25,169 bases of DNA, from IMG/VR virus record IMGVR_UViG_3300023179_000476, positions 1-25,169 of that record; one strand, written 5' to 3'. Each line of letters begins with the position of its first letter. Position 1 is the stretch's first letter. This DNA comes from a virus. Below the pieces are notes generated by a model. The model was not told where the DNA came from and searched no databases. It saw nothing but the letters and a program-made list of their open reading frames with translations. Shown here in pieces: positions 1-25,169 of the stretch. Position numbers and translations under genes: made by a program.

Positions 1-2
1 TC

Positions 3-962
3 TATAATGTTGTATCAGGCGCAGGACAATTTAGATTGTTTTGGGACAATCAAACCGCAGGGATTCCAGCTAATTCCCGGGGATTATCTAGTAGTAACGG
101 AACCTCATGGACTCCATTTTTGTCGGGGTCTACTTTAACAGCAGAAGTTTTTGTTTCTGCACCGCCCGCTTTAACTGCTGGAGAAACATATTTCCTTTCA
201 CCAACAACTGCCGGTAAAATTACTACATCAGATCCTACAGTGGTTGGCCAAGTATCTAAACCTCTTGGTGTTGCACGCTCTACAACTGCGTTTGAATTTT
301 TCAACATGCGCGGTTCAGTTGTTGGTGGCGCTAATGCCAGAACGCAGATTTCTTTATCTAATAATGCAATAACAACAATCCAAGTGGCCTCTGCTTACGA
401 TGCCGGCGAATTAACTGGCTGGGTAACTATTGACGCAACTACCGATTATCGTTTTTATGTTCAAGCCCAGTTTGCTAAAAACGGCGCCGGGACTGACTAT
501 AACATTTCATACCAAACTATGGGTGATGTTCCGCCGCTTGGATTTAGCGTTACTATCACTGCTGCCGGTTTAATACAAATTACTCTGCCAAATATTGCAG
601 GATTTGTTAATGCCAGCGTTAACTTTGCATTAAACGCTCCAGCTGTTGGCGCAACCTTTCCGTTAACAATTGGCGGAAATAATATAGTTGCAAATTATAA
701 AGCAGTAACAGGAACGTACACAATTAATGCTTCGGACTATTATGTTTCAGCATCAGGTGCAGTGGGATACACTATCAATTTGCCGGCAGCATCTACAGTG
801 TCCGGTAAAATATTTGTTGTAAAAAGTAGGCTAAATGCTGGCCAAGTTTTGACAATTGACGCAAATGGTTCGGAAACTATCGATGGAACTTTAACCGTTG
901 GCTTATTCCAAAACGAATCTTGCCATTTAGTTAGCAATGGCACATCTTGGGAGATGTTCTAA
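3..962 (+). CDS. tail fibre protein, 5' end outside window
   Basis: The reading frame is open from base 3, and the residues before the first possible start (a TTG at 36) continue smoothly into the protein, so the gene begins upstream and about 319 residues are visible. The sequence is rich in Thr, Ser, Gly, Ala and Asn with alternating beta-type segments, typical of trimeric phage fibres. It includes a motif reading LSPTTAGKIT followed by GQVSKPLGVA, of a kind I associate with phage fibre shafts. The last 85 or so residues form a domain (TIDANGSETIDG, ending NGTSWEMF) that recurs in the 111-aa protein at 3284-3619, so the two are related. The stop shares its last base with the start of the next gene. 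Role: virion fibre or baseplate appendage. The fibre class is well supported; the exact position in the virion is not. Confidence 0.75.
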   Translation, partial: YNVVSGAGQFRLFWDNQTAGIPANSRGLSSSNGTSWTPFLSGSTLTAEVFVSAPPALTAGETYFLSPTTAGKITTSDPTVVGQVSKPLGVARSTTAFEFFNMRGSVVGGANARTQISLSNNAITTIQVASAYDAGELTGWVTIDATTDYRFYVQAQFAKNGAGTDYNISYQTMGDVPPLGFSVTITAAGLIQITLPNIAGFVNASVNFALNAPAVGATFPLTIGGNNIVANYKAVTGTYTINASDYYVSASGAVGYTINLPAASTVSGKIFVVKSRLNAGQVLTIDANGSETIDGTLTVGLFQNESCHLVSNGTSWEMF

Positions 963-1690
963 TGGCATTTTTAGGCATTGCGCCAACCGGAACAGTATTA
1001 CCGTTTGCAGGCTCGGCAGCACCAGAAGGTTGGGCATTATGCGATGGCAGTGCTATAAGCCGCACAACCTATTCAAAACTATTTGGTGTTATTTCCACAA
1101 CATATGGAGTTGGTGATAATTCAACAACATTTAATGTTCCCGACATGCGCGGTGTTTATCCACGTGGAGCTGGAACAAACGGAACAGCAAATTATGGTGG
1201 AGTGACAGGACATACGCCAGCCGGTGGAGCTTTAGCTGCAAAAGGCGGACAAAAAACTGCCAAGAATGGATTAACGGCAAGTGCTAACAGCAGCAACATC
1301 AGCGCCTTAACACTTAATAGTAGTTCTATAACATTAACAATGAACAGCAGTTCTGTTTCTGGTAGCGTATCTGTAGGAAATAGTACAGTTCCAACGGACG
1401 GAATCATGCGTCCAACAGGCAGCACTAATTCAGGCGCAAAAACAGTGATTGACGATAGATGGTCAGATGGAAATTTTTATAACTGGGGTGCCACAACTCT
1501 ACCAAGTTCTTCTCACAATCACTCGGCAACCCCATCATTGACAGCCGCAGCGCAAACTTTGTCCACAGGCACAGCAGCTGCTCAAACTTTGTCTTCAGGA
1601 ACAGCATCAGCACAAACTATTACTGTAGGTGCAGGTGATACGGAAACAACACCAGCATTTTTAGCTCTTAATTATATTATTAAGTTATAA
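962..1690 (+). CDS. tail collar domain fibre protein, copy 1
   Basis: This 242-aa protein starts with a Phage Collar-type domain over about residues 8-60, recognisable from GTVLPFAGSAAPEGWALCDG, then SRTTYSKLF and FNVPDMRGVYPRG. The C terminus (ETTPAFLALNYIIKL) is a variant of the closing motif shared by the whole array. Between them is a Ser/Thr/Ala-rich stretch with short repeats (NSSSITLTMNSSSVSGS; AAQTLSTGTAAAQTLSSGTA) that closely resembles the protein at 2507-3274. One H-x-H motif (HNH) is present. The ATG at 962 is preferred: it overlaps the previous TAA and has GGGAG about 9 bases upstream. Collar proteins form trimeric tips of short or long tail fibres and often contact the receptor. 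Which fibre this belongs to is unknown. Confidence 0.85.
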   Translation: MAFLGIAPTGTVLPFAGSAAPEGWALCDGSAISRTTYSKLFGVISTTYGVGDNSTTFNVPDMRGVYPRGAGTNGTANYGGVTGHTPAGGALAAKGGQKTAKNGLTASANSSNISALTLNSSSITLTMNSSSVSGSVSVGNSTVPTDGIMRPTGSTNSGAKTVIDDRWSDGNFYNWGATTLPSSSHNHSATPSLTAAAQTLSTGTAAAQTLSSGTASAQTITVGAGDTETTPAFLALNYIIKL

Positions 1691-1699
1691 GAGGAACAA

Positions 1700-2503
1700 A
1701 TGGCAAACGCAGCATTATTAGCAACATTAGGAGACCAAACTTCGTCCCAAGCTGCGGGCGCAATCTCTGCATTAATGCCATCAGGCGTTATTTTGCCATT
1801 TGGTGGCTCATCTGCGCCACCAGGTTGGCTATTATGCGACGGTTCAGCAATTAGTAGAACAACATACGCAAATTTATTTGCTGCGATTGGCACATCGCAC
1901 GGTTATGGCGATAACTCCACCACATTTAATTTACCAGATTTTCGTGGTCGATTTATGCGTGGTGTAGATGGAACAGCAGGACGAGATCCAGATAAAGCGA
2001 CTAGAACCGCAGCTGCGACTGGAGGTAATACGGGCAATAATGTTGGGAGTATCCAAACAAACGCTACCGCTAAAAATGGATTGTCTGCAACAGCGGGAAC
2101 AGTAACTACAACAGTAAACGGGCTTAAAAATCAATTAAATGGAACTTCTGGTGGCGTATCAGCCGGCCATTATCATGGAATTAGCGGAGAAGGTGATCAT
2201 ACTCATCAGCAATACGTAACAGCAAATCCTGGTTTAGGTCCGTATAATACCCGTCTTGATTATAATTCCGATGCTAATAACCTTGCCACATATCCGCAGG
2301 TTCAAACGGGTGGTGCTGGAGCTCACTCTCATGGTGGTGGAACGGGAGGTCAAAGTGTTGACCATTCCCACTCTTGGGATTTTGGGGGTTCTGCAACTTT
2401 TTCTGCATCAGGGACAACACCAGCACAAGCTGTTACAGTTGGTAATGGAGATAATGAAACAAGGCCATTAAATATAAACGTTAACTATATTATCAAGGTA
2501 TAG
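1700..2503 (+). CDS. tail collar domain fibre protein, copy 2
   Basis: The 267-aa protein has an N-terminal extension of about 30 residues, then a collar domain (GVILPFGGSSAPPGWLLCDG, TTYANLF, FNLPDFRGRFMRG). A segment reading RDPDKATRTAAATGGNTGNNVGS follows, corresponding to the RDPDRATRTASNPGGNTGDNVGS segment of the three later copies. Four H-x-H motifs occur (HYH, HTH, HSH, HSH), and the end is ETRPLNINVNYIIKV. The start has a good ribosome site (AGAGGAAC) 7 or so bases upstream, 9 bases after the previous stop. It looks intermediate between the Ser/Ala-rich copies 1 and 3 and the histidine-rich copies 4-6. Likely a receptor-binding or fibre-tip subunit; the ligand is unknown. Confidence 0.85.
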   Translation: MANAALLATLGDQTSSQAAGAISALMPSGVILPFGGSSAPPGWLLCDGSAISRTTYANLFAAIGTSHGYGDNSTTFNLPDFRGRFMRGVDGTAGRDPDKATRTAAATGGNTGNNVGSIQTNATAKNGLSATAGTVTTTVNGLKNQLNGTSGGVSAGHYHGISGEGDHTHQQYVTANPGLGPYNTRLDYNSDANNLATYPQVQTGGAGAHSHGGGTGGQSVDHSHSWDFGGSATFSASGTTPAQAVTVGNGDNETRPLNINVNYIIKV

Positions 2504-2506
2504 AAA

Positions 2507-3274
2507 ATGTCAAGTAGTGCAATTTCTGGACTTACAATTATCGATTTTCCAGCGGGAATGATTATGCCATACGCCGGATCATCAACGCCGGCAGGTTGGT
2601 TGGAATGTAATGGGGCAGAAGTTGATATTTCTGCATATCCGTCATTATCAGCGGCACTTGGAACTACTTGGAATAATGCTAAAAATCCTTTAACTGGTGC
2701 AACATATGCAAGCCCAGCAGCGGGAAAATTCCGTTTGCCAGATTTAAGGGGTTCGTTTTTACGAGGATCTTCCGGCGGAGCTAATAACGCACAAGGTGTT
2801 GCGACTGGATTGGCGGAATTTCAAACACACAAAACTGCTAAAAATGGATTAACAGCAACTTCTGGTACGAGCAATCTTAGTGCATTAACAATGAACAGCA
2901 GCAGTATTTCATTAACAATGAACAGCAGTAGTGTCTCCGGCTCAGCAACTTCAGGAGGTATAGATCATACCCACACTGCAGGTATTTACAGAGTTACTGC
3001 AGATTTTTCCAATGGTACCACCGGCTTAATTCGAAACGGCGGTGCTGCAACTCCATCTAGCTATGGTACTGCAGAAGCTTCAAGTGGTGCTTCTGCATAT
3101 AACCATACTCACGGATTGTCCGCAACAGCAGCCGCTCAAACATTATCAACTGGTTCAGCCGCAGCTCAAACAGTTTCATCTAGCACAGTAGCGGCACCTG
3201 CTATTACAATAGGGGCTGGCGATGCCGAAACAAGACCAGATGCAGTTGGTGTTAGATATTTGATTAAAATTTAA
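2507..3274 (+). CDS. tail collar domain fibre protein, copy 3
   Basis: 255 aa. The collar domain lies at about residues 15-85 (MIMPYAGSSTPAGWLECNG, FRLPDLRGSFLRG), with an insertion between its two halves compared with neighbours. The middle carries the SALTMNSSSISLTMNSSSV repeat block also found in copy 1 at 962-1690, two H-x-H motifs (both HTH) and an Ala/Gln/Thr repeat. It ends AETRPDAVGVRYLIKI. The gene begins three bases after the preceding stop, so the two are probably translated together. The shared block with copy 1 but not with copy 2 between them suggests shuffling of shaft segments within the array. Likely a fibre-tip protein. Confidence 0.83.
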   Translation: MSSSAISGLTIIDFPAGMIMPYAGSSTPAGWLECNGAEVDISAYPSLSAALGTTWNNAKNPLTGATYASPAAGKFRLPDLRGSFLRGSSGGANNAQGVATGLAEFQTHKTAKNGLTATSGTSNLSALTMNSSSISLTMNSSSVSGSATSGGIDHTHTAGIYRVTADFSNGTTGLIRNGGAATPSSYGTAEASSGASAYNHTHGLSATAAAQTLSTGSAAAQTVSSSTVAAPAITIGAGDAETRPDAVGVRYLIKI

Positions 3275-3283
3275 GGATTTATT

Positions 3284-3619
3284 ATGGCAACATATACATC
3301 TAAATTCAAACCAACTCCAGTATTTATGAAGGACTTTTACCTTCAATACTATGTTGTTACTCTTACATCTGGTACAACTCTAACTGATTTGCCAGTAAAT
3401 TATCTTTATGCATGTAACTCTGCAACAGCCATAACTGTCGTCTTGCCTTCTGCAGTCGGAAAAGACGGTTGCGTTTTGTTCTTTAAAAATATAAATACTG
3501 GTAATGTAACTATTGATGGTAATGGTTCACAAACAATTGATGGACAGTTAACACAAATTTTGCCACAATATTCTTCATTTGAATTAGTGGCACTTAATGG
3601 AAACTGGTTTATTAAATGA
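3284..3619 (+). CDS. small fibre-domain protein
   Basis: A 111-aa protein that lacks a collar domain. It consists of about 25 lead residues followed by a domain (YLYACNSATAITVVLPSAVG, then TIDGNGSQTIDG, ending LNGNWFIK) clearly related to the C-terminal domain of the fibre at 3-962. It may be a free-standing fibre cap or attachment module, or a remnant of a longer fibre gene. The start has an AAGGATT ribosome site, and the stop overlaps the next start in an ATGA arrangement, so translation of the two is probably coupled. The relationship to the first gene is visible in the sequence; the separate function is unknown. Confidence 0.7.
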   Translation: MATYTSKFKPTPVFMKDFYLQYYVVTLTSGTTLTDLPVNYLYACNSATAITVVLPSAVGKDGCVLFFKNINTGNVTIDGNGSQTIDGQLTQILPQYSSFELVALNGNWFIK

Positions 3620-4350
3620 CGTTATTCAACTTTGTGCCGACAGGCTCAATTTTGCCATCTTCCGAATCTGCAGCACCATCAGGATGGTTGTTGTGTGATG
3701 GCTCTGCAATTAGTCGAACAATTTATCCCAATTTATTTGCTGCAATCGGTACGACTTGGGGAAATGGAGATGGATCTACTACATTTCACTTACCAGATTT
3801 AAGAGGCCGGTTTCTGAGGGGAAGAGATGGGGGAGTAGGTCGCGATCCCGACCGCGCAACAAGAACAGCCTCAAATCCTGGTGGCAATACTGGAGATAAC
3901 GTCGGAAGTGTGCAAGGCCATGGATATAAAACCCATAACCATGGCGTAACTACGTCTGGCGGCACTACTGGCAACGAAAGTGCAGATCACTATCACAGCA
4001 CTGGATACGTTTCTAACGACCATAGCCATTGGGCTAATGGCAACGGTGATCATTATCACTGGCAAAACGATGCATATTGGGCAGAATCTAATGGTGGAAA
4101 CCAGAGTCTACGAGGAGAGGGATATGGAAATGATTATGATAATCAACCGTGGTATAGATGGATTACCTATAGTAATGCCGGCTGGCATGATCATGGAACG
4201 GGTGGAGTTAATTCAAACCATGTACATGGAACTGGTGGCAGAAGCGCTGGCCATTCGCATGCAGTGACGACCTCGGTATCGGTAACGGCTAATGGCGGAA
4301 ACGAAACAAGACCTAAAAACGTAACCCTAAACTATATTATTAAAATATGA
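3616..4350 (+). CDS. tail collar fibre protein, His-rich, copy 4
   Basis: 244 aa, with a collar domain at residues 8-60 (SGWLLCDG, FHLPDLRGRFLRG), the RDPDRATRTASNPGGNTGDNVGS linker, then a histidine- and glycine-rich region of about 110 residues, and the closing motif NETRPKNVTLNYIIKI. Seven H-x-H motifs are present in order: HNH, HYH, HSH, HYH, HDH, HVH, HSH. In T4 gp37 the receptor-binding needle is a trimer whose H-x-H motifs bind a line of iron ions, so a similar metal-filled needle is a reasonable inference here. It also has many Trp and Tyr residues between the fifth and sixth histidine groups, a likely exposed and variable loop. Start and stop both overlap neighbours by ATGA. Confidence 0.85.
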   Translation: MTLFNFVPTGSILPSSESAAPSGWLLCDGSAISRTIYPNLFAAIGTTWGNGDGSTTFHLPDLRGRFLRGRDGGVGRDPDRATRTASNPGGNTGDNVGSVQGHGYKTHNHGVTTSGGTTGNESADHYHSTGYVSNDHSHWANGNGDHYHWQNDAYWAESNGGNQSLRGEGYGNDYDNQPWYRWITYSNAGWHDHGTGGVNSNHVHGTGGRSAGHSHAVTTSVSVTANGGNETRPKNVTLNYIIKI

Positions 4351-5081
4351 CTTTTTTTAATTCAATACCATCAGGAACAATTTTGCCATTTGCAGGAACA
4401 ACTGCTCCTGCTGGATGGTTGTTGTGTGACGGTTCAATTATTAGCAGAACGGTATATGCAAATTTATTCAATAAAATATCAACAAGTTTTGGAAACGGTG
4501 ATGGATCTTCCACTTTCCATTTACCAGATATGCGCGGAAGGTTTGAGCGTGGCAAAGACAGCGGCATAGCTAGAGATCCAGACAGAACTGCCAGAACGGC
4601 TTCAAATCCTGGTGGTAATACTGGAGATAATGTTGGAAGTGTACAAGACCATACGTATTCTTCTCATACTCACACAAACTCTGCCAGCGTTTCTACTGGT
4701 GGTGAAAGCGTAGATCATTCGCATAATAATACTGGCTACATTAGCGCAGATCATGGACACTATGTCAATCCTACTGGCGATCATAACCATGGTTCAGACG
4801 ATGCTTATTTTTCTGAGTTTAATGGATGGAATAGAGGATTCCAAGGCAGTAATCATGGTGGACATTGGAGCAATAGTGTAGATTCTACATGGCAAGCTAC
4901 CGAATCTCAAGGCTGGCATGATCATGGAACAGGCGGAGTTTCTGCTAACCATTATCACGGTACAAATACGGTATCTGCGTGGCACACCCACACAATACCA
5001 TTTAACTTATCGATTAATACAGACGGCGGAAACGAAACAAGACCAGTTAACGCAAATATGAATTATGTGATTAAAATATGA
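4347..5081 (+). CDS. tail collar fibre protein, His-rich, copy 5
   Basis: 244 aa, the same length and plan as the proteins before and after it: collar domain (GTILPFAGTTAPAGWLLCDG, FHLPDMRGRFERG), the RDPDRTARTASNPGGNTGDNVGS linker, a His-rich needle-like region and the ending NETRPVNANMNYVIKI. The seven H-x-H motifs are HTH, HSH, HGH, HNH, HDH, HYH, HTH, in matching positions to copy 4. Its linker is identical at the DNA level over 88 bases to that of copy 6, pointing to a recent duplication or gene conversion, while the loops between histidine groups differ. The start overlaps the previous stop (ATGA). Probable receptor-binding tip. Confidence 0.85.
   Translation: MTFFNSIPSGTILPFAGTTAPAGWLLCDGSIISRTVYANLFNKISTSFGNGDGSSTFHLPDMRGRFERGKDSGIARDPDRTARTASNPGGNTGDNVGSVQDHTYSSHTHTNSASVSTGGESVDHSHNNTGYISADHGHYVNPTGDHNHGSDDAYFSEFNGWNRGFQGSNHGGHWSNSVDSTWQATESQGWHDHGTGGVSANHYHGTNTVSAWHTHTIPFNLSINTDGGNETRPVNANMNYVIKI
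4561..4648 (+). repeat. 88-bp exact direct repeat, copy A
   Basis: These 88 bases are identical, including all synonymous positions, to 5292-5379 in the next collar gene. They encode the linker between collar domain and His-rich region. A second identical stretch of 29 bases (4500-4528 and 5231-5259) lies just upstream. The equivalent part of copy 4 (around 3830-3915) has many synonymous differences, so the identity is recent. Confidence 0.95.
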
Positions 5082-5812
5082 CTTACTTTAACTCTTTACC
5101 ACCAGGAATTGTTATACCGTTCGGAGGACCGACCGCTCCTGCTGGATGGTTGTTGTGTGATGGCTCTGCAGTGAGCAGGTCTTTATATAGCACTTTATTC
5201 TCTGCCATTGGGACAACTTGGGGCAATGGAGATGGATCTTCCACTTTCCATTTACCAGACTTGAGAGGTAGGTTTTTAAGAGGTAAAGATGGCGGCATAG
5301 CTAGAGATCCAGACAGAACTGCCAGAACGGCTTCAAATCCTGGTGGTAATACTGGAGATAATGTTGGAAGTGTACAAGATAACGCACACGGACATGATCA
5401 TGCCAATACTCGATCAGCAACATCGGACATTCCAAATGTAAACCATACGCACGGAAATACTGGTTATATTAGTGCAGACCATGGCCATTATGTAAATCCA
5501 AGCGGAGCACACACCCATGGTCGCGTTGATGCACATTTTTGTTCCGCCCCCAGTGCTGGTATGTTTGGCACAAACCAGACATATGACTATGATAATGGTA
5601 GATTAACACACGGAACAACTTCCGGATGGGCTAGCATTGGTAATCATGGGCATTCTACTGGTGGAATTAACACTAACCATTATCACGATTCACCTGGCCG
5701 TTCAGTAAATCATACTCACGAAGCAACGCCATCGGTTACTATTAATAATAGTGGGTCTATATCTGAAACTAGACCTTTAAATGCAAATGTGAATTATATT
5801 ATAAAAATATAA
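5078..5812 (+). CDS. tail collar fibre protein, His-rich, copy 6
   Basis: 244 aa. Collar domain (GIVIPFGGPTAPAGWLLCDG, FHLPDLRGRFLRG), the conserved linker, then a His-rich region with the same seven histidine positions as copies 4 and 5 (HGHDH, HTH, HGH, HTH, HGH, HYH, HTH), ending SETRPLNANVNYIIKI. The loop between the fourth and fifth motifs (about residues 160-190) is unlike copies 4 and 5 and contains one Cys. It is the last gene of the collar array; a 24-base gap with an own ribosome site precedes the next gene. Three near-equal paralogs in a row could give alternative receptor specificities, or heterotrimeric tips; the sequence alone cannot decide. Confidence 0.85.
   Translation: MTYFNSLPPGIVIPFGGPTAPAGWLLCDGSAVSRSLYSTLFSAIGTTWGNGDGSSTFHLPDLRGRFLRGKDGGIARDPDRTARTASNPGGNTGDNVGSVQDNAHGHDHANTRSATSDIPNVNHTHGNTGYISADHGHYVNPSGAHTHGRVDAHFCSAPSAGMFGTNQTYDYDNGRLTHGTTSGWASIGNHGHSTGGINTNHYHDSPGRSVNHTHEATPSVTINNSGSISETRPLNANVNYIIKI
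5292..5379 (+). repeat. 88-bp exact direct repeat, copy B
   Basis: Second copy of the 88-base block at 4561-4648, spaced 731 bases away in the same frame of the neighbouring paralog. Such a block could act as a homology tract for recombination that swaps the variable His-rich tips. Confidence 0.95.
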
Positions 5813-9441: not shown

Positions 9442-10094
9442 ATGTCCAACAAACTTCCATTATTTCTTCTGCGCCTCTCTGTACAATTGAGGTTGACAGC
9501 GCCAAAATTGCGTATGCAGTTGGCCTAAGCCTAAATGTTGGTATTAGTCTTCAAGAGATTCGTGTTCTTGGTCAATTTGAACTAGAATCAATTGAACCAA
9601 TGGCTATGATGCCTGTTACTGGTTCTTTTCAAGTTATTCGCCTTCTTACCGAGGCAGTCCGTAAAGAAAATGTGAGTGCGGCCACCAAAATGCCAAATTC
9701 TCTAGTTAGAACGAAAGAAGAGGTCGGTGACCTAAAAGGTCTTGCCAAAGATGCCGTTATTGCTAATTCTACAACTTCCGAACAAGGCACTGGTGCATTA
9801 ACTGGCAGTTCAGAGCTTGCTAAGCATCTTGATCCTCGTACCATTCTTTTGTCTAAATCGTTTGACATTACTATCAAAATGAAAGTTCCATCTGTTAAGA
9901 AAGATAAGGATTGGGTTCAAGGGGACGAAACAGTGTTTATGGAAATTAAAGATTGCCGACTTTCTGGCGCTAGCGCTAGTATCTCGCCTGGGGCTCTGCT
10001 CACAGAATCGGTAGAATTCCAAGGACTTATCGCTATTCGTAAAAAAGCTGGTAAACCTGTTGAAGCTTCTAGTGTTAAGGTTAATGATCTTTAA
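9442..10094 (+). CDS. tail tube-like structural protein B, frameshifted
   Basis: Paralog of the protein at 8892-9425. A start with an AGAGGATAAC site lies at 9442 and gives MSNKLP, matching MAGQIP of the paralog, but this frame stops at 9526. The rest of the protein is open in the frame one base earlier, where CTIEVDSAKIAYAVGLSLNV onward matches the paralog. From the shared Pro to the shared Glu-Pro both proteins have exactly 47 residues if a single base is restored near 9460-9465 (a T-rich stretch, CCATTATTTCTT). The later frame has no ATG until 9600, which would drop the conserved N-terminal strands. The repaired protein is 217 aa. A missing base in the assembly, a real mutation or a programmed -1 shift are all possible; no classical slippery heptamer is present. 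Confidence 0.7.
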
Positions 10095-10804
10095 TCTTTC
10101 CGCAGCGCCTTTTTAGCTTTCTCGAAGTCTCGTTCGTATAGATGTAAACTACCGGCATTACAAATAATAGTGCCGGTTTTTACGTTTAATTGATCTGCAA
10201 TTTTAGTTTGTAGATAGTGCATAAATTCAATGTCGTATGGCACACCCAAGAATATATCCCAACTGCGAAAATTAATAATACAAACTAGTTCGTCATTACG
10301 AATAATAAACTGATTATTAGCGCAACATGGCGTATCCTTATTCCCTTCCCAAAAATTTTTTGATTCGCCGTAATGCATAATTGCTTGGCGACTATCCCTG
10401 TCCTTTTTAAGAGTTTTTACCACAAATTCATAACCAGTAAGCCACTCCCCCCCACTGGTGGGGTACTTCTTGGCAAACAAGGTAAGGTATCCATAGTTGC
10501 TAGTAATAATTCCATTTTCGTCGGCAATTGTTTGCCAGAATTTGGCGGGTGCAGAATCTGCCCTAAGATTACCGCTTAGATACCAATCAAGTTCTTTTTT
10601 ACAGTAATTATCGTAGATTGGTTGGCGTTCTGGTAGGCCAGTCTTTGTCCAATCCAGTTTTATCCCAAGATTAGGATTAATGACAAACTGTTTACCGACA
10701 AGTTCGTGTATCTTTTGGCCCCGTGGCGCAGAAACATATTGTGGTCGGCTATAAAGTTCTTCCAAAAGATTAAAATATACGTCATGAAAATCAGCGTAAA
10801 TCAT
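10091..10804 (-). CDS. thymidylate synthase-family protein, probable dCMP hydroxymethylase
   Basis: 237 aa. It has the thymidylate synthase catalytic layout: nucleophile Cys160 (TPCCANNQF), Arg180-Ser181 and Asp183 (FRSWDIFLGVPYDI), then His221 and Tyr223 (HLY). Spacings from the Cys (20, 21, 23, 31, 61, 63) equal those of E. coli ThyA from Cys146. At the position of ThyA Asn177, which selects dUMP, this protein has Asp191; T4 dCMP hydroxymethylase has Asp at that site, so dCMP is the likely substrate and 5-hydroxymethyl-dCMP a likely product. The residue after the nucleophile is Cys, not the usual His. The start at 10804 is preferred over 10825 because AGAGGA lies just upstream and 10825 falls inside a possible -10. 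The gene runs against the tail genes and shares stop bases with its neighbour. Confidence 0.8.
   Translation of the reverse strand: MIYADFHDVYFNLLEELYSRPQYVSAPRGQKIHELVGKQFVINPNLGIKLDWTKTGLPERQPIYDNYCKKELDWYLSGNLRADSAPAKFWQTIADENGIITSNYGYLTLFAKKYPTSGGEWLTGYEFVVKTLKKDRDSRQAIMHYGESKNFWEGNKDTPCCANNQFIIRNDELVCIINFRSWDIFLGVPYDIEFMHYLQTKIADQLNVKTGTIICNAGSLHLYERDFEKAKKALRKD
10450..10463. repeat. GC-rich hairpin inside the dCMP hydroxymethylase-like gene
   Basis: CCCCAC and GTGGGG flank a two-base centre, extended on one side by a run of seven C from 10447. It encodes part of a Pro-Thr-Ser-Gly-Gly loop between two conserved regions. It stands out from the AT-rich surroundings and resembles the palindrome at 18744-18759 in make-up. 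Confidence 0.55.
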
Positions 10805-10823
10805 GTATTTTCCTCTTTGATAC

Positions 10824-10852
10824 ATGGTACGATTTTATTAATACGGAGACAA
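10824..10852 (-). promoter_or_regulatory. candidate promoter for the minus-strand hydroxymethylase-like gene
   Basis: On the minus strand TTGTCT and TACCAT are separated by exactly 17 bases (each 4 of 6 to consensus). A transcript would begin near 10817 and carry the AGAGGA ribosome site right before the start at 10804. This would allow the gene to be expressed apart from the surrounding plus-strand tail genes. Confidence 0.35.
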
Positions 10853-19513: not shown

Positions 19514-20077
19514 ATGCCATCAAGTTTGGTCTATACTTACAAAGTTTATAAAGATGACGAACTAATCTCCGAAAAATCTTTTAGCATTCCTATTCCTGAA
19601 CTTCCCATCCCTAGCCTTGGTATTAGCCTGCCAAGTTTGAGTGTACCAGAGTTGCCAGAACTGCCTAAAATGCCACAAATAGATATACCAGCTATACCCA
19701 AAATGCCGGGTATGCCAAAGATGTCTGCCCTTGCGATTCCCGCTCTGCCATCGTTACCATCTTTAAATTTACCAATTCCATCTTTTGGAATATCATTACC
19801 AAGCTTATCTGTCCCTGAATTACCAGAATTGCCAAAGTTGCCAGAAATACCCGCTCCTAATCTGCCAAAAATGCCCGGTATGCCAAAGATGTCTGCTATT
19901 GCAGTTCCACCTCTGCCTCCGCTGCCATCATTGGATTTGCCGATTCCGTCTTTTGGAATATCATTGCCAAGTTTATCTTTGCCGGAATTACCAGAAATGC
20001 CAAAATTGCCGAGCATAGACATTCCGTCTTTACCCGGCTACAGATTTACACAATCTAAAACTGTAAAAAGCACTTAA
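19514..20077 (+). CDS. proline-rich repeat protein following the spike
   Basis: 187 aa; no family recognised. About 29 lead residues (VYTYKVYKDDELISEKSFSI) are followed by 2.6 copies of a 56-residue unit starting at residues 30, 86 and 142. Each begins LPIPS(L/F)GISLPSLS and contains PELPELPK and, in the first two, PKMPGMPKMSA. Proline comes about every third residue, often preceded by Leu, Ile or Met, so a long polyproline-type or extended rod is likely rather than a globular fold. A short basic tail (YRFTQSKTVKST) ends it. It starts four bases after the spike stop. In other contractile systems a PAAR tip gene often follows the spike; this has no PAAR features. It could be a tip sheath, a fibre or a spacer; function unknown. 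Confidence 0.75.
   Translation: MPSSLVYTYKVYKDDELISEKSFSIPIPELPIPSLGISLPSLSVPELPELPKMPQIDIPAIPKMPGMPKMSALAIPALPSLPSLNLPIPSFGISLPSLSVPELPELPKLPEIPAPNLPKMPGMPKMSAIAVPPLPPLPSLDLPIPSFGISLPSLSLPELPEMPKLPSIDIPSLPGYRFTQSKTVKST
19601..20038 (+). repeat. 168-bp tandem coding repeat, 2.6 copies
   Basis: Copies start at 19601, 19769 and 19937; the last is cut after 34 codons. Between the first two copies, protein identity is high over the first 24 codons and over the PKMPGMPKMSA segment, but many third bases differ, so selection has kept the protein pattern while DNA drifted. Confidence 0.9.
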
Positions 20078-20081
20078 TCTA

Positions 20082-20258
20082 TTAATTGGATTGCTTAGGC
20101 AGACATCTAATCACATTTGGGTGGGCAGATATAACTTTTTTAATCATATCTTTTTCAATCACAACTACACGTTTGCATTCTATAATCTGCTTTTTTGATT
20201 CCGAGGCCATCGTAACACTCGTCAGGAATAGCCCCAAAATCAAAACAAACAGTTTCAT
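20082..20258 (-). CDS. 58-aa predicted secreted small protein
   Basis: An ATG at 20258 overlaps the TGA of the VWA gene (ATGA), with GCGAAAG shortly before, and opens a 58-codon frame. The first 18 residues (MKLFVLILGLFLTSVTMA) are a good signal peptide: Lys, hydrophobic core, Thr-Met-Ala cleavage site, then SESKK. The mature part of about 40 residues is basic and holds two Cys (residues 28 and 52), which could form a disulfide in the periplasm. Its stop lies four bases from the end of the convergent proline-rich gene. Stop-start overlap, signal peptide and fit to the gap support a real gene. It may work with the transglycosylase or VWA protein of the same cluster; no known family was recognised. 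Confidence 0.7.
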   Translation of the reverse strand: MKLFVLILGLFLTSVTMASESKKQIIECKRVVVIEKDMIKKVISAHPNVIRCLPKQSN

Positions 20259-22006
20259 CTTTCGCCCAATACTTTTGGAATGTTAATCACATGCAATTTC
20301 CAGCGATCATCGCGCAGCGATTCTTCGAGGCCATTTACATACTCATCTGTAAGATACACGAAATCAACATTCTTGGATAGGTTGTTTTCTTCGAGCATCT
20401 TAGCCAGTAGTTGTGGCGACAATTCCGTACCGCCTCCACCCTGCATCTCGATTTGGGAGAAGTTACTCTTTAGGTCGATTTTGTGGTGTTCGGTATCGCA
20501 GCAATAAAACGCAGCGAGCTTGTTAGACTTGCTGTAGAACTTCGCGGCAGCGGCAATTTGATTGAACCACTGTTTGTTCCACATAGAGCCGGATGTGTCG
20601 GCAATCATAATAACTTGCTTCTTGGGCTTTTCGATCTTTTGGCGACCTGGCAAATCTTTAATGTCGTTGAAAATACGATTGATCTTGGCAAAGTTGTAAT
20701 TCTTTTCGTTGCTTGGTGCAAAGAGTCGAACAAACTTGATGTGCAAATGCTCAAGCAGCTTTTTGATTTTGGCATCAAGTGCGGCAGTAGCATCGCCAAA
20801 CATGGAGTTATCAGCGGCATTCTTACCGGCTTTATGAGCCATAAGTCGCCCTTCTTCCTGCGCTTTGCGAACAGCTTCGCGCAACCGACGCTCTGCCTCT
20901 TCCTTCTTGTCGCCACTCATACCGTGGTGGTCGAACTCGTTATCTTCCATTTGCTTGAGGATTTCATCAATTTCATCACCACTACCGCCGCCTTCTCCAC
21001 CTTCCCCGCCTTCACCTTCTCCCTGTTGTGGATCATTGGCATCGCTGTTTTCATCAAGCTGCCGAGCAAGCCATTCAATATACTCGTCAGCATAGTTTAG
21101 CCACTCACCCTCACGCCGCAGGGTGGGTTGATAATGTGGCATATTCCGAAAGCTATCTTCCAAATTTTCAACAGTACAAAGTCCAATCTGGAGGCGCATA
21201 CATTCAGCAAGAGCCGCAGCTTGGTCTGAACTATGCTTCTTGAGGGCAGTTTCGATCTGAGACTTTTTCTTTGGACCCGCGTACTTCAGAATGCCCTGCA
21301 CTTCTTCTTCAAACTTGCCTGCTGCAATCTTATCCTTGGCCAGTTCTTCCGTTGGAAAACCGTTCAGGTATGGAACAAACCGATCAGCCATAAATTGGTT
21401 GATAGTTGCCATCACTTCTTTAGGACTGGAGAACGCTTTCACCAAATCTTCGTGTAGAGCCGAATCCATTGTGATGTTCGATGCACGATACTTGAGGTTT
21501 TTCCACCGATTATTATCTTTATTGTCGAAGCTATCAATTTGTTTTTGCCAAATATCTTTGTGTTCCTGTTCTTTAGCTTCATCTCGTTTTTTGATATAAA
21601 CATCACGAATTGGCGACAAATCAATAAGGTTTTCGATAGCTCGCATATCAGAGCATTGGATCAAGTGGCGAAGCTCATGCATGATAATAAAGAACGCAGC
21701 GTTTTTGTTCTTTTGAGCCAGCTCCGCCATGAGGGGGTGGATATACATTGTAAGGCGATCAACGTTGGTGATGCCCGCAATAGCGGGAAAATTAGGATCA
21801 GTTTTAATTTCAACAGTGCCAAGCAGTGCAAGTGTGAAATAAAATTCACGGCCAGCGGCCCACGCGCAGAAATCGGCACGCAGGTTCAAGATACGATTGC
21901 GATATTCTGCAACTTGCGCATCAGTCAACAAAGGAATTTGTCGTTGAAGTGCATTCTGCAGGAACTTTGCTTTCTTGGCTTCGAGGCTTGTATCATGGCT
22001 GGCCAT
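20255..22006 (-). CDS. VWA-domain protein with N-terminal metallopeptidase-like region (DUF2201 type)
   Basis: 583 aa. An HExxH motif (HELRH, residues 110-114) lies in a helical N-terminal region, then an acidic Gly/Glu-rich linker (about residues 325-370) and a C-terminal VWA domain with a full MIDAS: D470-x-S472-x-S474, Thr527 and Asp554. This layout matches the putative metallopeptidase plus VWA-like family (DUF2201), usually encoded with a MoxR ATPase, as it is here with one gene between. VWA/MoxR pairs are thought to act as chaperones or metal-linked remodelling machines on protein targets. No signal peptide, so it is probably cytoplasmic. The start at 22006 is chosen because AAGGAG lies just before it; an ATG 30 bases upstream has no such site. 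Zinc binding and peptidase activity are inferred only. Confidence 0.85.
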   Translation of the reverse strand: MASHDTSLEAKKAKFLQNALQRQIPLLTDAQVAEYRNRILNLRADFCAWAAGREFYFTLALLGTVEIKTDPNFPAIAGITNVDRLTMYIHPLMAELAQKNKNAAFFIIMHELRHLIQCSDMRAIENLIDLSPIRDVYIKKRDEAKEQEHKDIWQKQIDSFDNKDNNRWKNLKYRASNITMDSALHEDLVKAFSSPKEVMATINQFMADRFVPYLNGFPTEELAKDKIAAGKFEEEVQGILKYAGPKKKSQIETALKKHSSDQAAALAECMRLQIGLCTVENLEDSFRNMPHYQPTLRREGEWLNYADEYIEWLARQLDENSDANDPQQGEGEGGEGGEGGGSGDEIDEILKQMEDNEFDHHGMSGDKKEEAERRLREAVRKAQEEGRLMAHKAGKNAADNSMFGDATAALDAKIKKLLEHLHIKFVRLFAPSNEKNYNFAKINRIFNDIKDLPGRQKIEKPKKQVIMIADTSGSMWNKQWFNQIAAAAKFYSKSNKLAAFYCCDTEHHKIDLKSNFSQIEMQGGGGTELSPQLLAKMLEENNLSKNVDFVYLTDEYVNGLEESLRDDRWKLHVINIPKVLGER

Positions 22007-22035
22007 AGTGTTCTCCTTATTGCTATTATCCCACA

Positions 22036-22065
22036 TTACTTATCGGAGCCTTTGGCATCTAACTT
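22036..22065 (-). repeat. imperfect 30-bp direct repeat, copy 1, before the VWA gene
   Basis: TTACTTATCGGAGC (14 bases, plus strand) and, after a diverged 8-base spacer, TCTAACTT occur here and at 23944-23972 in the same order and orientation. Here the element ends 30 bases before the VWA start and overlaps the last codons of the transglycosylase. Confidence 0.7.
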
Positions 22066-22725
22066 TAGGGGTTTTGCGTCCTTTACCTTTTCTAAAAACC
22101 TCGAAATTTTAGTGACATAATTAGCAGTTTCATTATTGATGTTTGCCATTTGTTCAACGCGTTTAAGGTCTTTGGAGAACTGGCCCGCATTGTAAGAGAT
22201 GAGCGCAAGCGTTTTAGAGCCGTTTACGTTCTTTAACATCTCCTTAAAAGCACATGCAGAAATCGCAAGGTTAATTTCTGTCATGTACAAGTCTTCGTCG
22301 GTAAAGTCATTAGGTAGCCCACATTTTTCTGCATACCACTTGGCAGATTTAGGCATGATCTGGCCAATGCCAATCGCACCAACGGGTGATTTAGCTTTGT
22401 GATTAAACCGACTTTCATTGGCAAGAATTGCAACCCAAGTTTCACGTTCATCGCGACTCTCAAAAGAATCCATACCAACGCGAACAATTTGTGAACCAAG
22501 ATAAGCATTCTTAGCTTCGGAGTTTTTTGGTGCTGCAATAGCCATTGCGTTGCTAACAAATCTAATAAACTCTTTTTGCTCGCTGCTTTGTCTGTCGAGT
22601 AGCTCGGAGTATTGGTTTACAGCGCACTCATTGCTTTTGCTGAGTTTGTGTTCAGCATTAGGGCTCGAACAGCTAATCAATGCCGCAGAAACAATAGCCA
22701 AAGATACATACGAAGAACAATTCAT
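22036..22725 (-). CDS. SLT-family lytic transglycosylase lipoprotein
   Basis: 229 aa. A lipoprotein signal with lipobox LISC (Cys19) starts the protein, so it is expected to be anchored in a membrane facing the periplasm. The catalytic domain at about 95-190 has the soluble lytic transglycosylase motifs: Glu104 in ANESRFN, SPVGAIGIGQIMP, and ALISYNAG. Such enzymes cleave peptidoglycan between MurNAc and GlcNAc. Its start has GAGGTG upstream. A lipid-anchored lytic enzyme made inside the host is less common for phage than a virion-borne or soluble endolysin and suggests action on the wall from within the envelope, perhaps for lysis or to aid release. It lies between the MoxR and VWA genes. Confidence 0.87.
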   Translation of the reverse strand: MNCSSYVSLAIVSAALISCSSPNAEHKLSKSNECAVNQYSELLDRQSSEQKEFIRFVSNAMAIAAPKNSEAKNAYLGSQIVRVGMDSFESRDERETWVAILANESRFNHKAKSPVGAIGIGQIMPKSAKWYAEKCGLPNDFTDEDLYMTEINLAISACAFKEMLKNVNGSKTLALISYNAGQFSKDLKRVEQMANINNETANYVTKISRFLEKVKDAKPLKLDAKGSDK

Positions 22726-22753
22726 TAAAACACCTCATGTTATAGTACAAAAC

Positions 22754-22780
22754 TCTCCACCCGTGTAGCACAGGTGGAGA
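22754..22780 (-). terminator. rho-independent terminator-like hairpin after the MoxR gene
   Basis: An 8-base perfect stem (TCTCCACC/GGTGGAGA), one C-A mismatch, three more pairs and a three-base loop. On the minus strand it is followed by GTTTTGT. It sits about 20 bases past the MoxR stop and about 29 before the transglycosylase start, so it may lower expression of the downstream genes or stabilise the message end. Confidence 0.5.
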
Positions 22781-22800
22781 AGGGGCGCATCAAACCGTCC

Positions 22801-23907
22801 TTACGAACGGTCTTTCGGAGAAAGCTTACCGAGTTTCAGTGCGTAGAGTTGCCATGGAAGGCCAGTGTCTTTGATTTCCGCATCGTTCTTGCCAGGGCGG
22901 TTATCTTTGTAAGGCTGGCCTTCTTTGTTAAGGGGAAACTCTTCTTGGTCGTAACGGAACGCAAACTTGGCTTCTTGCATGGAACGGGCAAGTTCAGGCG
23001 AACCGTATTGAAGCAGGTAGTCGGCCATGTGGCGTTCAACTTTTTTGAGTGTACGCTTGCCTTCATGAGCTTCGAGTTCATTTTTGAACAATGAAACAAT
23101 TTCAATGATCATACCTTCCTGTTCGCATTGAGCAATTTTCTCAAACGCTTCGGGTGTTACTTTGCGTGGCAACTTAAATTCTTGCTGTCGCTTGATTTGT
23201 AGCAGTGTGCTTGCAAGAACATTGCCGGATTCATTGCCAAGGCGACCGCGACAGACCAAAGCCAGTTCTTCTTCATTGAGCAACTCGGTTTCCCACAGTT
23301 GAACAGCGGCGTCAATTTGGCGTGGACAGTTTTTCAGTTTAAGTTCTGGCACACCCGGCTTGCCTGCAATTTTTGGATTGAGTTTAAGTGCTTCTTGCGC
23401 GAGTTTGCTCTGCATGTTACCAATGATTTGGAATTCATCGGGAGCAAAAACCAAGTGGGTCAGGCGGTTAATCACCGCATCGGGAAGCTCTTGCACACCA
23501 GTATCTTCAGTGTCGAGGTTGCCCGCAGCAACTACCAGAACATTGTCGGGAAGTTGAATACCATTAAGTTCACGATCGAGCAAGAGTTGTGTAAGCATAT
23601 TCAGTGTTTGAATGCTATTTGGACGATTAAGTTCATCAAGGAACAGAACAGTTGGCTCACTGCTTTTGCAAAGTTCATGGAGCCAGCGTGCGGGCCACAG
23701 GTCAACAACGCGCTCGTTTTCATTCTTAACCGGAAGTTGGATTTCAAGCGGGTCAATAAACACAGTGCGCTTATCAACGAGGCGATAGTTATGACGTTTG
23801 CAAAAACCTTTCACGGTGGACGATTTGCCGTAGCCGGAAGAACCCCACAAAATAAGCGGCAGCTTAGTTTTGTGATGTGCAAGGAAGATGTTGTCGAACT
23901 GTTGCAT
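22801..23907 (-). CDS. MoxR-family AAA+ ATPase
   Basis: 368 aa. Walker A GSSGYGKS (residues 22-29), Walker B VLFLDE (87-92) followed by LNRPN, sensor-1 Asn130 in VVAAGN, and an Arg-finger candidate Arg148 in VINRLTH. The DELNR motif and the sequence around LPDAVINRL are typical of MoxR/CbbQ-type ATPases. These normally act with VWA-domain partners as chaperones that remodel or activate target complexes; the VWA protein of this cluster is the obvious partner. The C-terminal 150 residues, with many charged helices, have no match I recognise and may bind the partner. The start has AGGAGCG upstream. Substrate unknown; ATPase family well supported. Confidence 0.87.
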   Translation of the reverse strand: MQQFDNIFLAHHKTKLPLILWGSSGYGKSSTVKGFCKRHNYRLVDKRTVFIDPLEIQLPVKNENERVVDLWPARWLHELCKSSEPTVLFLDELNRPNSIQTLNMLTQLLLDRELNGIQLPDNVLVVAAGNLDTEDTGVQELPDAVINRLTHLVFAPDEFQIIGNMQSKLAQEALKLNPKIAGKPGVPELKLKNCPRQIDAAVQLWETELLNEEELALVCRGRLGNESGNVLASTLLQIKRQQEFKLPRKVTPEAFEKIAQCEQEGMIIEIVSLFKNELEAHEGKRTLKKVERHMADYLLQYGSPELARSMQEAKFAFRYDQEEFPLNKEGQPYKDNRPGKNDAEIKDTGLPWQLYALKLGKLSPKDRS

Positions 23908-23943: not shown

Positions 23944-23972
23944 TTACTTATCGGAGCTTTTAGTTCTAACTT
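23944..23972 (-). repeat. imperfect 29-bp direct repeat, copy 2, before the MoxR gene
   Basis: Second copy of the element at 22036-22065, 37 bases before the MoxR start, in the 161-base gap between the divergent MoxR and kinase genes. No convincing -35/-10 pair was found around it; a binding site for a regulator or a leftover of a duplicated end of the transglycosylase gene are both possible. Confidence 0.65.
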
Positions 23973-24068
23973 AATGCTTAGTCGAAAAACTTTTTTATCA
24001 TTGTATTTTTTGTTTGTCTTGCACTAAAAATGGTCGCACACTAATAGTAGGAAACGGAGTAACAAAAA

Positions 24069-24623
24069 ATGAAAGTAATTGCATTCTATGGCGCACCAGG
24101 TTCTGGTAAAAGTACTCTGGCAACAGCTTGCTATTCTACGATGGGATATTTAGGCAAGAATGTTGGATATTGTTGGGAATTTATTAAAGACCCAGCTCAA
24201 CGCGCTGAGTACAGACCAACTCCGATTGACCAGCTTTGGATTGCGGGAAACCAGTCACAACTATTAGTCAATTGTGTTAAAGCAAAGTATGATGCGGTGT
24301 TCTGTGACAGCACACCAAAACTCTGTGCGTGGTTTAGTGAACACTACGGCAAGGGACAATTCAAGCAATTAGAGCATTGTGTTATTGAATGGGAAAAGCA
24401 ACTGCAAGAACAATATAATTGCGAGATTATAGATGTGTTCTTGGATATTCCACCAGAAGTATATGCCGAACGACATAGAGGAAGCGGTCGTTGGGAGAAC
24501 TTTGAAGATGCACTAAAAATGCACAACGAAATGCGAGACTGGTTAAAAGCTAGAAGCAGCAATTTTATATCTATTGTTGAAACAACTCCCAATTATGTTC
24601 TTCGGAAAGTAGGTTTAATATGA
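24069..24623 (+). CDS. P-loop kinase-like protein
   Basis: 184 aa. It opens with a P-loop (GAPGSGKST, residues 8-16) after a hydrophobic strand (MKVIAFY), followed by a second strand-Asp pair (YDAVFCDSTP) and a helical C-terminal part with a possible lid (ERHRGSGRWENFED), the layout of small nucleotide or nucleoside kinases and AAA_28/NadR-type kinase domains. Which substrate it uses cannot be read from the sequence; a deoxynucleotide such as hydroxymethyl-dCMP is possible given the hydroxymethylase-like gene elsewhere in the window. CGGAG lies about 10 bases before the start. The stop overlaps the next start (ATGA), suggesting coupled expression with the oxygenase-like protein. Confidence 0.7.
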   Translation: MKVIAFYGAPGSGKSTLATACYSTMGYLGKNVGYCWEFIKDPAQRAEYRPTPIDQLWIAGNQSQLLVNCVKAKYDAVFCDSTPKLCAWFSEHYGKGQFKQLEHCVIEWEKQLQEQYNCEIIDVFLDIPPEVYAERHRGSGRWENFEDALKMHNEMRDWLKARSSNFISIVETTPNYVLRKVGLI

Positions 24624-25169
24624 GCGAATTATTTAGATTATATGAGGATTTTTATGCAGGCAAAGAAATTCAGTCTAAACTTATTGAAGATACTAAGCGA
24701 CTTATTAGACGATTTTATAATGTTCTTAACCTTCAAAACCATGCAGCTTATTTTTCAGATATATCCAACAACAGATCCAGTTACGCTTTTATCTTATGTC
24801 CAGAAAACAAATCAAGCCTGCCTGCTATTGATTTAGCAGATGTTGCTAGTGTTTCTAGGCCAATTTCGCTTTTGACTTTGGAGCTCTACGAGATTCTTAA
24901 TCTTCCAAAGACTAGCCGTGTTTTGTTCAACATACAGATGTACAAAGGTGATAGCAAGCCCGTCGCAAAACATTTTGATGGAGAATTCTTGGAGTTTTCC
25001 GTTGACGGCGAAAATCTAAACATTAAACGCGCAATTAGACCAAAGCAGGTTGCAGTGCTCACATTATTAAATAACACCCTAGAGGGTGGCACAAGAATAC
25101 ATTTTGACACCTCGCAGGATGTCAGCGAGTCTGCAGTCATTAAAGGCAAGGCTGGAGACTTATTGGTTT
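24620..25169 (+). CDS. 2-oxoglutarate/Fe(II) oxygenase-like protein, 3' end outside window
   Basis: 183 residues are visible and the frame runs off the window. The start overlaps the kinase stop. The later part carries the signs of a double-stranded beta-helix oxygenase of the prolyl-4-hydroxylase-like type: H118-x-D120 (VAKHFDGEF), then VAVLTLLNNTLEGGTRI, a hallmark Gly-Gly-Thr turn, and a GKAGDLLV strand that normally precedes the second iron-binding His, which would lie just past the edge. The N-terminal 100 residues are not recognised. Such enzymes hydroxylate proteins or nucleic-acid bases. The target here is unknown. Confidence 0.65.
   Translation, partial: MSELFRLYEDFYAGKEIQSKLIEDTKRLIRRFYNVLNLQNHAAYFSDISNNRSSYAFILCPENKSSLPAIDLADVASVSRPISLLTLELYEILNLPKTSRVLFNIQMYKGDSKPVAKHFDGEFLEFSVDGENLNIKRAIRPKQVAVLTLLNNTLEGGTRIHFDTSQDVSESAVIKGKAGDLLV

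What the first reader, a model, noticed from the sequence alone, without database searches (positions are those of the whole stretch)
20082..23907. Minus-strand cluster: MoxR ATPase, lipoprotein transglycosylase, VWA/metallopeptidase-like protein and secreted peptide
Seen: four co-directional genes with complete motifs (MoxR Walker A/B, VWA MIDAS, HELRH, lipobox plus SLT motifs, signal peptide), opposite in strand to the tail genes and visibly richer in GC. Known: MoxR and VWA/DUF2201 proteins act as pairs. New here is a membrane-anchored peptidoglycan enzyme placed between the pair and a secreted peptide translationally coupled to the VWA gene. Inference: an envelope-remodelling, lysis-timing or host-takeover device in which the AAA/VWA machine controls export or activity of the wall enzyme.
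Basis: partly seen in the sequence, partly recalled or inferred. Interest (0 to 1): 0.68.

Follow-up and report, generated by a model that had tools for sequence, protein, structure and literature searches.

The report
Phage ATPase–metallopeptidase pair, transglycosylase inserted

Summary
In detail: on the minus strand lie a MoxR-like ATPase (23907-22801), a membrane-anchored SLT lytic transglycosylase (22725-22036), an HELRH/VWA protein (22036-20255; true start probably 22006) and a 58-aa secreted peptide (20258-20082). One relative, a 169-kb IMG/VR contig (G001), keeps all four in order (89, 81, 84, 28% identity). The four-gene device is not general. In 79 distant phage loci found through the ATPase, 60 have a downstream HExxH-VWA gene and none has this SLT; the space between often holds unrelated genes. 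The ATPase + metallopeptidase-VWA pair was already described in jumbo phages and N4-like phages. In both genomes the MoxR gene has its own promoter-like element and is followed by a conserved terminator-like hairpin; a second promoter copy lies in the 3' end of SLT, before VWA. These elements resemble sigma28 (FliA) promoters (TAAAGTTA-N11-TCCGATA). G001 has 18 near-perfect copies, all within 106-136 kb, a block of small genes plus this cassette. G001 has a separate GH19 endolysin, so SLT is probably not the main lysis enzyme. Best reading: known early/middle chaperone-peptidase pair with a lineage-specific envelope enzyme inserted. AAA/VWA control of the SLT has no support beyond adjacency.

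The parts
23948..23974 (-). sigma28(FliA)-type promoter-like element TTAAGTTA-GAACTAAAAGC-TCCGATAA upstream of MoxR
   Evidence: 13/16 to TAAAGTTT-N11-GCCGATAA; the only site >=13/16 to the phage consensus in the window (0.27 expected)
22801..23907 (-). MoxR-like AAA+ ATPase, 368 aa
   Evidence: PF00004 3.5e-6, PF07728 1.1e-4, phrog_1297 3e-29; 89% identical in G001
22753..22781 (-). terminator-like hairpin (13 bp) followed by TTTTG, between MoxR and SLT
   Evidence: conserved in position with changed stem sequence in G001 (12 bp, 9 GC)
22036..22725 (-). membrane-anchored family-1 (SLT) lytic transglycosylase, 229 aa; lipobox LISC here, TM anchor in the relative; catalytic Glu104
   Evidence: PF01464 6.9e-18; 81% identical from residue 45 in G001; sequence hits to Slt structures, weak fold hits to Slt/MltE
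22040..22067 (-). second copy of the promoter-like element (spacer one base longer), encoding the SLT C-terminus KLDAKGSDK* and lying just before the VWA start
   Evidence: also present at the same place in G001 (137348)
20255..22036 (-). metallopeptidase-like (HELRH) + VWA (MIDAS DTSGS) protein, 593 aa as called; conserved start probably at 22006
   Evidence: phrog_1314 1.3e-16
20082..20258 (-). 58-aa peptide with type-I signal peptide and two Cys; ATGA overlap with VWA
   Evidence: 28% identical 79-aa counterpart in G001 with two conserved Cys, not overlapping

Best explanation
The core is a divergent member of the known phage pair of a MoxR-like AAA+ ATPase and a metallopeptidase-VWA partner, transcribed early or in mid infection. 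By analogy with MoxR/VWA systems, the hexameric ATPase and the VWA co-chaperone bind a protein in the cytoplasm and remodel it, and the HELRH domain may cleave it (inferred). In this lineage a membrane-anchored SLT transglycosylase and a small secreted Cys peptide sit at the same locus. The SLT appears to have been inserted between a terminated MoxR unit and the promoter of VWA: its last nine codons read through that promoter-like element. The SLT most likely opens peptidoglycan locally from the periplasmic side of the infected cell, as one of several exported envelope-acting proteins in the early-type gene set, rather than as the main lysis enzyme and rather than as a client of the ATPase. 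Shown: gene content, motifs, conservation in one relative, promoter-like elements, hairpin, absence of SLT in the distant loci examined. Inferred: timing, biochemical roles, insertion history.
For: MoxR + HExxH-VWA pair in 60 of 79 distant loci (60/60 with HExxH) and in named phages of several families. Same pair reported in PMC7824862 with the accessions ASV44729.1/ASV44728.2 seen here. N4 gp24/gp25 are middle genes (PMC4193335; gp24/gp25 named as this pair in St11Ph5). Promoter element: 18 copies >=15/16 in G001, all within 106.7-135.5 kb and 20-116 nt before same-strand start codons; 3 more in a third contig, G003, which ends inside the homologous block; exactly 2 in the window with spacer 10-11, both in the cassette, 0 in shuffles. 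Terminator-like hairpin conserved by position, with changed stem sequence. Separate GH19 endolysin in G001 (PF00182 4e-15, phrog_181 endolysin 2e-21). Other exported proteins in the same block of G001: ClpP-like protease with signal peptide (PF00574 2e-15) and a HELGHCLLDLGH lipoprotein.
Against: Only two genomes show the cassette. The cargo of the ATPase is unknown. All four genes stay together in both genomes, which also fits a joint function. PF13203 (DUF2201_N) was not detected and PF09967 only below cut-off, so metallopeptidase activity rests on motifs. The VWA model was too poor to use (pLDDT 38). Terminator and promoter calls are sequence-based. The hairpin has only a short T-run, so readthrough into SLT is likely.
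Confidence: 0.6

Rival explanations
1. One reading: the MoxR-VWA machine controls export or activity of the transglycosylase, with the peptide as cofactor, to remodel the envelope or time lysis.
For: Same order and strand of all four genes in both genomes, purifying selection on three. A few other phages also have exported proteins between MoxR and VWA: L106/L107 an LPP20 lipoprotein plus a secreted protein, L066 a secreted protein.
Against: SLT in none of 79 distant loci nor in the named phages checked. MoxR is separated by a terminator-like hairpin. ATPase and VWA have no export signal, so they sit in another compartment than the mature SLT. SLT N-terminus (11% identical over residues 1-44) and peptide are poorly conserved.
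Confidence: 0.1
2. The SLT (with the peptide) is part of the lysis apparatus, for example an exported or signal-anchor endolysin.
For: SLT domains occur in phage endolysins. The relative's anchored N-terminus resembles a signal-anchor design.
Against: Separate GH19 endolysin in the relative. SLT lies with early-type, not structural, genes. A lipoprotein anchor in the window would not act as a releasable signal-anchor.
Confidence: 0.15
3. SLT and the peptide act in superinfection exclusion or in protecting and conditioning the envelope after infection; the MoxR-VWA pair is unrelated to them.
For: Anchored exported enzyme and secreted peptide beside genes of the promoter class shared with the early-type block, together with other exported proteins. 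Phage lipoproteins are known exclusion factors (general knowledge).
Against: No sequence match to a known exclusion protein. A wall-cutting enzyme is not a typical exclusion factor.
Confidence: 0.25
4. The MoxR/metallopeptidase-VWA pair serves virion (tail) assembly and proteolytic processing, as proposed for jumbo phages.
For: Proposal in PMC7824862. The cassette lies next to the baseplate-hub gene here and in G001.
Against: Opposite strand to the tail genes and carries a promoter class absent from the structural regions. N4 gp24/25 are middle genes.
Confidence: 0.3

Closest known systems
Phage MoxR AAA+ / metallopeptidase-vWA pair (Iyer et al. 2021, PMC7824862; Atu_ph07 ASV44729.1/ASV44728.2)
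   Same: AAA+ ATPase followed by a co-directional protein with N-terminal metallopeptidase-like region and C-terminal VWA with MIDAS
   Different: VWA partner is longer and very divergent (no full-length match in public phages); SLT and secreted peptide genes at the locus
N4 gp24/gp25 pair of Schitoviridae (phrog_1297/phrog_1314)
   Same: Same two-gene core; some members have an extra gene between (LUZ7)
   Different: No SLT between; 391-407-aa partner; unrelated phage group; the partner is labelled 'HNH endonuclease' in databases
RavA-ViaA and CoxD-CoxE MoxR/VWA systems of bacteria
   Same: ATPase plus VWA co-chaperone
   Different: No metallopeptidase domain fused there (general knowledge); not close in sequence
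Bacterial membrane-bound lytic transglycosylases (MltE, MltC, Slt family 1)
   Same: SLT domain with catalytic Glu; exported and membrane-anchored
   Different: Phage-encoded; anchor type differs between the two genomes; only about 26% identity to Slt
sigma28 (FliA) promoters, TAAAGTTT-N11-GCCGATAA (consensus quoted in PMC7286023)
   Same: Phage element matches 13/16 with the same 11-nt spacer
   Different: Longer conserved phage extension (AGATT.CAAA, TATGTAA); recognising sigma factor not known

Membership tests
Phage MoxR / metallopeptidase-vWA pair | AAA+ ATPase with Walker A/B and sensor 1, matching the phage ATPase family | tested here: met
   PF00004 and PF07728 above cut-off, phrog_1297 3e-29
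Phage MoxR / metallopeptidase-vWA pair | Co-directional downstream partner with HExxH and VWA MIDAS | tested here: met
   HELRH 120-124, DTSGS 480-484; hhalign VWA region to the phage family prob 90%, E 1.4e-6; phrog_1314 1.3e-16
Phage MoxR / metallopeptidase-vWA pair | Hexameric ATPase activity and physical ATPase-VWA complex | not testable with these tools
   needs biochemistry
MoxR clade in the strict sense (Pfam AAA_3, PF07726) | Match to PF07726 | tested here: not met
   Only AAA and AAA_5 reach their cut-offs; hence 'MoxR-like'
DUF2201 metallopeptidase/VWA proteins (PF13203 + PF09967) | Match to both domains above cut-off | tested here: not met
   PF13203 no match at E<=10; PF09967 21.8 bits vs 26.4; works like, membership unproven
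Family-1 lytic transglycosylase (SLT) | SLT domain with catalytic Glu, GxGxxQxxP and YNAG motifs | tested here: met
   PF01464 64.8 bits vs 21.3; motifs
Bacterial lipoprotein | Lipobox with basic N-region, conserved | tested here: inconclusive
   LISC present but no K/R before it; relative has no lipobox Cys
Four-gene envelope device as a recurring system | SLT kept between or beside the pair in distant phages | tested here: not met
   0 of 79 distant loci; kept only in the 169-kb relative
sigma28 (FliA)-type promoter | -35/-10 consensus with 11-nt spacer, enriched before genes | tested here: met
   25 sites >=13/16 in G001 vs 4.0 expected, count highest at spacer 11; positions
sigma28 (FliA)-type promoter | Transcription by sigma28 holoenzyme of host or phage | not testable with these tools
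   No Sigma70_r2 in G001; one weak Sigma70_r4-like protein below cut-off

The most novel reading that the evidence does not exclude
A large phage, closest by DNA polymerase and portal to Myxococcus phage Mx1, places a block of early-type genes, several of them exported envelope-acting proteins (ClpP-like protease, metallopeptidase-like lipoprotein, and at this locus the transglycosylase), under flagellar sigma28-type promoters. It would thereby exploit the host's flagellar sigma factor, with the MoxR/metallopeptidase-VWA pair and SLT as part of that envelope-takeover regulon.
Probability: 0.25. Interest if true: 0.7.

Novelty: new variant of a known kind. Interest (0 to 1): 0.42.

Why it matters
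It places this minus-strand cluster within a widespread but functionally unsolved phage pair, shows that the space between its two genes carries variable cargo, and shows that a third-gene 'device' should not be inferred from one window. The sigma28-type elements give a testable handle on timing and host: if confirmed, a phage gene block is tied to flagellar gene control.

Tried and rejected
AlphaFold model of the VWA protein (two-sequence alignment): pLDDT 38, not used. The SLT model (pLDDT 67) gave only weak fold hits, to Slt and MltE. A genome-contig scan with the SLT alignment used poor patterns and gave one distant locus. Searches for the cassette in six further contigs of the same phage group were empty; the four that were mapped lack the homologous region. 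PADLOC: no match. Rfam: no match in the window. Single-protein and two-sequence searches of viral contigs found only G001. Papers on sigma28 promoters in phages and on transglycosylase lipoproteins in exclusion: nothing relevant in the listed titles. Considered and dropped: SLT as sole endolysin (GH19 present in G001); peptide as Rz1-type spanin (no lipobox, not proline-rich); a Bdellovibrio-like host (suggested only by the metallopeptidase-like lipoproteins and sigma28-type elements, not testable here).

Full report
Observation. The window is a 25,169-base IMG/VR virus fragment. Four co-directional minus-strand ORFs lie at 23907-20082, between a convergent tail region and a divergent kinase gene. 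Pfam and PHROGs assign the first to AAA/AAA_5 ATPases (phrog_1297), the second to SLT transglycosylases, the third weakly to DUF2201 VWA (phrog_1314, labelled 'HNH endonuclease', a label the sequences do not support), and the peptide to nothing. No PADLOC family matches the ATPase, SLT or VWA protein.

Conservation. One contig, IMGVR_UViG_3300020204_000007 (G001, 169 kb), carries the same four genes in order, opposite to the tail genes. Identity is 89% for the ATPase, 84% for the VWA protein, 81% for SLT residues 45-229, and 28% for the peptide. dN is far below dS for the ATPase, VWA and the SLT core, although dS is saturated; the SLT N-terminus is not conserved (11% over residues 1-44). The relative's SLT has a hydrophobic anchor without a lipobox cysteine. 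The relative's VWA starts at window codon 11, and its peptide does not overlap VWA.

Distribution. tblastn to public phages finds the ATPase in 165 records at E<=1e-5 and 403 at 0.01, all below 60% identity. In named phages the ATPase is followed, directly or after other genes, by an HExxH-VWA protein: St11Ph5 (gp24/gp25), LUZ7, RHph_I1_6, CR3, phiR1-37, PhAER-3, the PA5oct-like phage 30-3 and SCTP-2; Atu_ph07 has HQ in place of HE. A profile search of viral contigs gave 79 distant loci. 60 have a downstream co-directional VWA gene, all 60 with HExxH, at gaps from -4 to 2368 bp, and 31 of the gaps reach 340 bp or more. The 19 without it have at most 2.1 kb of sequence left. A profile from the two SLTs finds 30%-identical SLTs in control loci but none in these 79. 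The intervening genes looked at vary: small unknown proteins, a radical-SAM protein, and in three loci exported proteins including an LPP20 lipoprotein. So the core is the pair; the SLT is specific to this lineage as far as these data reach.

Regulation. A blastn side-match led to a repeated element, AAAGTTAGATTnCAAAnCTCCGATATGTAA. It matches the FliA (sigma28) consensus TAAAGTTT-N11-GCCGATAA, quoted in PMC7286023, at 13/16 with the same spacer. G001 has 25 sites with 13 or more matches against 4.0 in shuffles, with the highest count at spacer 11. For the phage's own consensus, 18 sites reach at least 15/16, all in 106.7-135.5 kb and each 20-116 nt before a same-strand start codon; a third contig, G003, has three more. 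In the window, allowing a spacer of 10 or 11, exactly two sites occur, before the ATPase and in the 3' end of SLT before VWA; the second is also present at that place in G001. Between ATPase and SLT both genomes have a strong GC-rich hairpin followed by TTTTG with changed stem sequence; by my scan it is the most GC-rich of about a dozen intergenic terminator-like hairpins in G001. The simplest reading is a monocistronic ATPase unit and a separately promoted VWA unit, with SLT placed between them and its last codons reading through the VWA promoter. The insertion order is inferred.

Setting. G001 encodes a GH19 endolysin elsewhere. Its promoter-bearing block also encodes a ClpP-like protease with a signal peptide and a lipoprotein with HELGHCLLDLGH; a second lipoprotein with HELMHCVFDVEH lies just upstream at 101 kb. 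Its DNA polymerase and portal are closest, among annotated phages, to Myxococcus phage Mx1, in which the element is not enriched (one 13/16 hit, 0.5 expected). The host is unknown.

Mechanism and known systems. The ATPase and VWA partner fit the chaperone/co-chaperone pair with fused metallopeptidase reported for jumbo phages, where a role in virion assembly was proposed (PMC7824862). N4 gp24/gp25 are middle genes (PMC4193335). I favour an early or mid-infection protein-remodelling and cleaving machine in the cytoplasm, with the SLT as a separate exported wall enzyme that conditions the envelope. No result here ties ATPase or VWA to SLT beyond adjacency in two related genomes.

Noticed in passing
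G001 (IMGVR_UViG_3300020204_000007) 106700-135500; G003 1-4000: Regularly repeated sigma28(FliA)-type promoter-like elements before a block of small genes; absent from the structural regions.
   Followed up: partly
G001 101287-101757, 113181-113900, 122806-123375, 125634-125870: Other exported proteins in or near the same block: two HExxH lipoproteins, a ClpP-like protease with a signal peptide, a Cys-rich secreted 78-aa protein.
   Followed up: partly
PHROGs phrog_1314; phage records cited: The metallopeptidase-VWA partner is widely annotated as 'HNH endonuclease', which its sequence does not support.
   Followed up: yes
L106 1499-2903, L107, L066 7527-8078: Exported proteins (LPP20 lipoprotein, secreted proteins) lie between the ATPase and VWA genes in a few unrelated phages.
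   Followed up: partly
L128 8139-9593: A radical-SAM protein with a B12-binding-like stretch lies between the ATPase and VWA genes.
   Followed up: no
window 947-5812: Run of similar tail collar fibre-like genes (four of them tested) in tandem, possible receptor-binding diversity.
   Followed up: no
window 19514-20077: Proline/leucine-rich repeat protein directly after the baseplate-hub gene; no family match.
   Followed up: no
window 10091-10825 (minus): Conserved opposite-strand ORF inside the structural block (77% identical in G001 at 149162-149869).
   Followed up: no
window 24069-25168: Divergent kinase-like and oxygenase-like genes next to the cassette, also conserved beside it in G001.
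   Followed up: no
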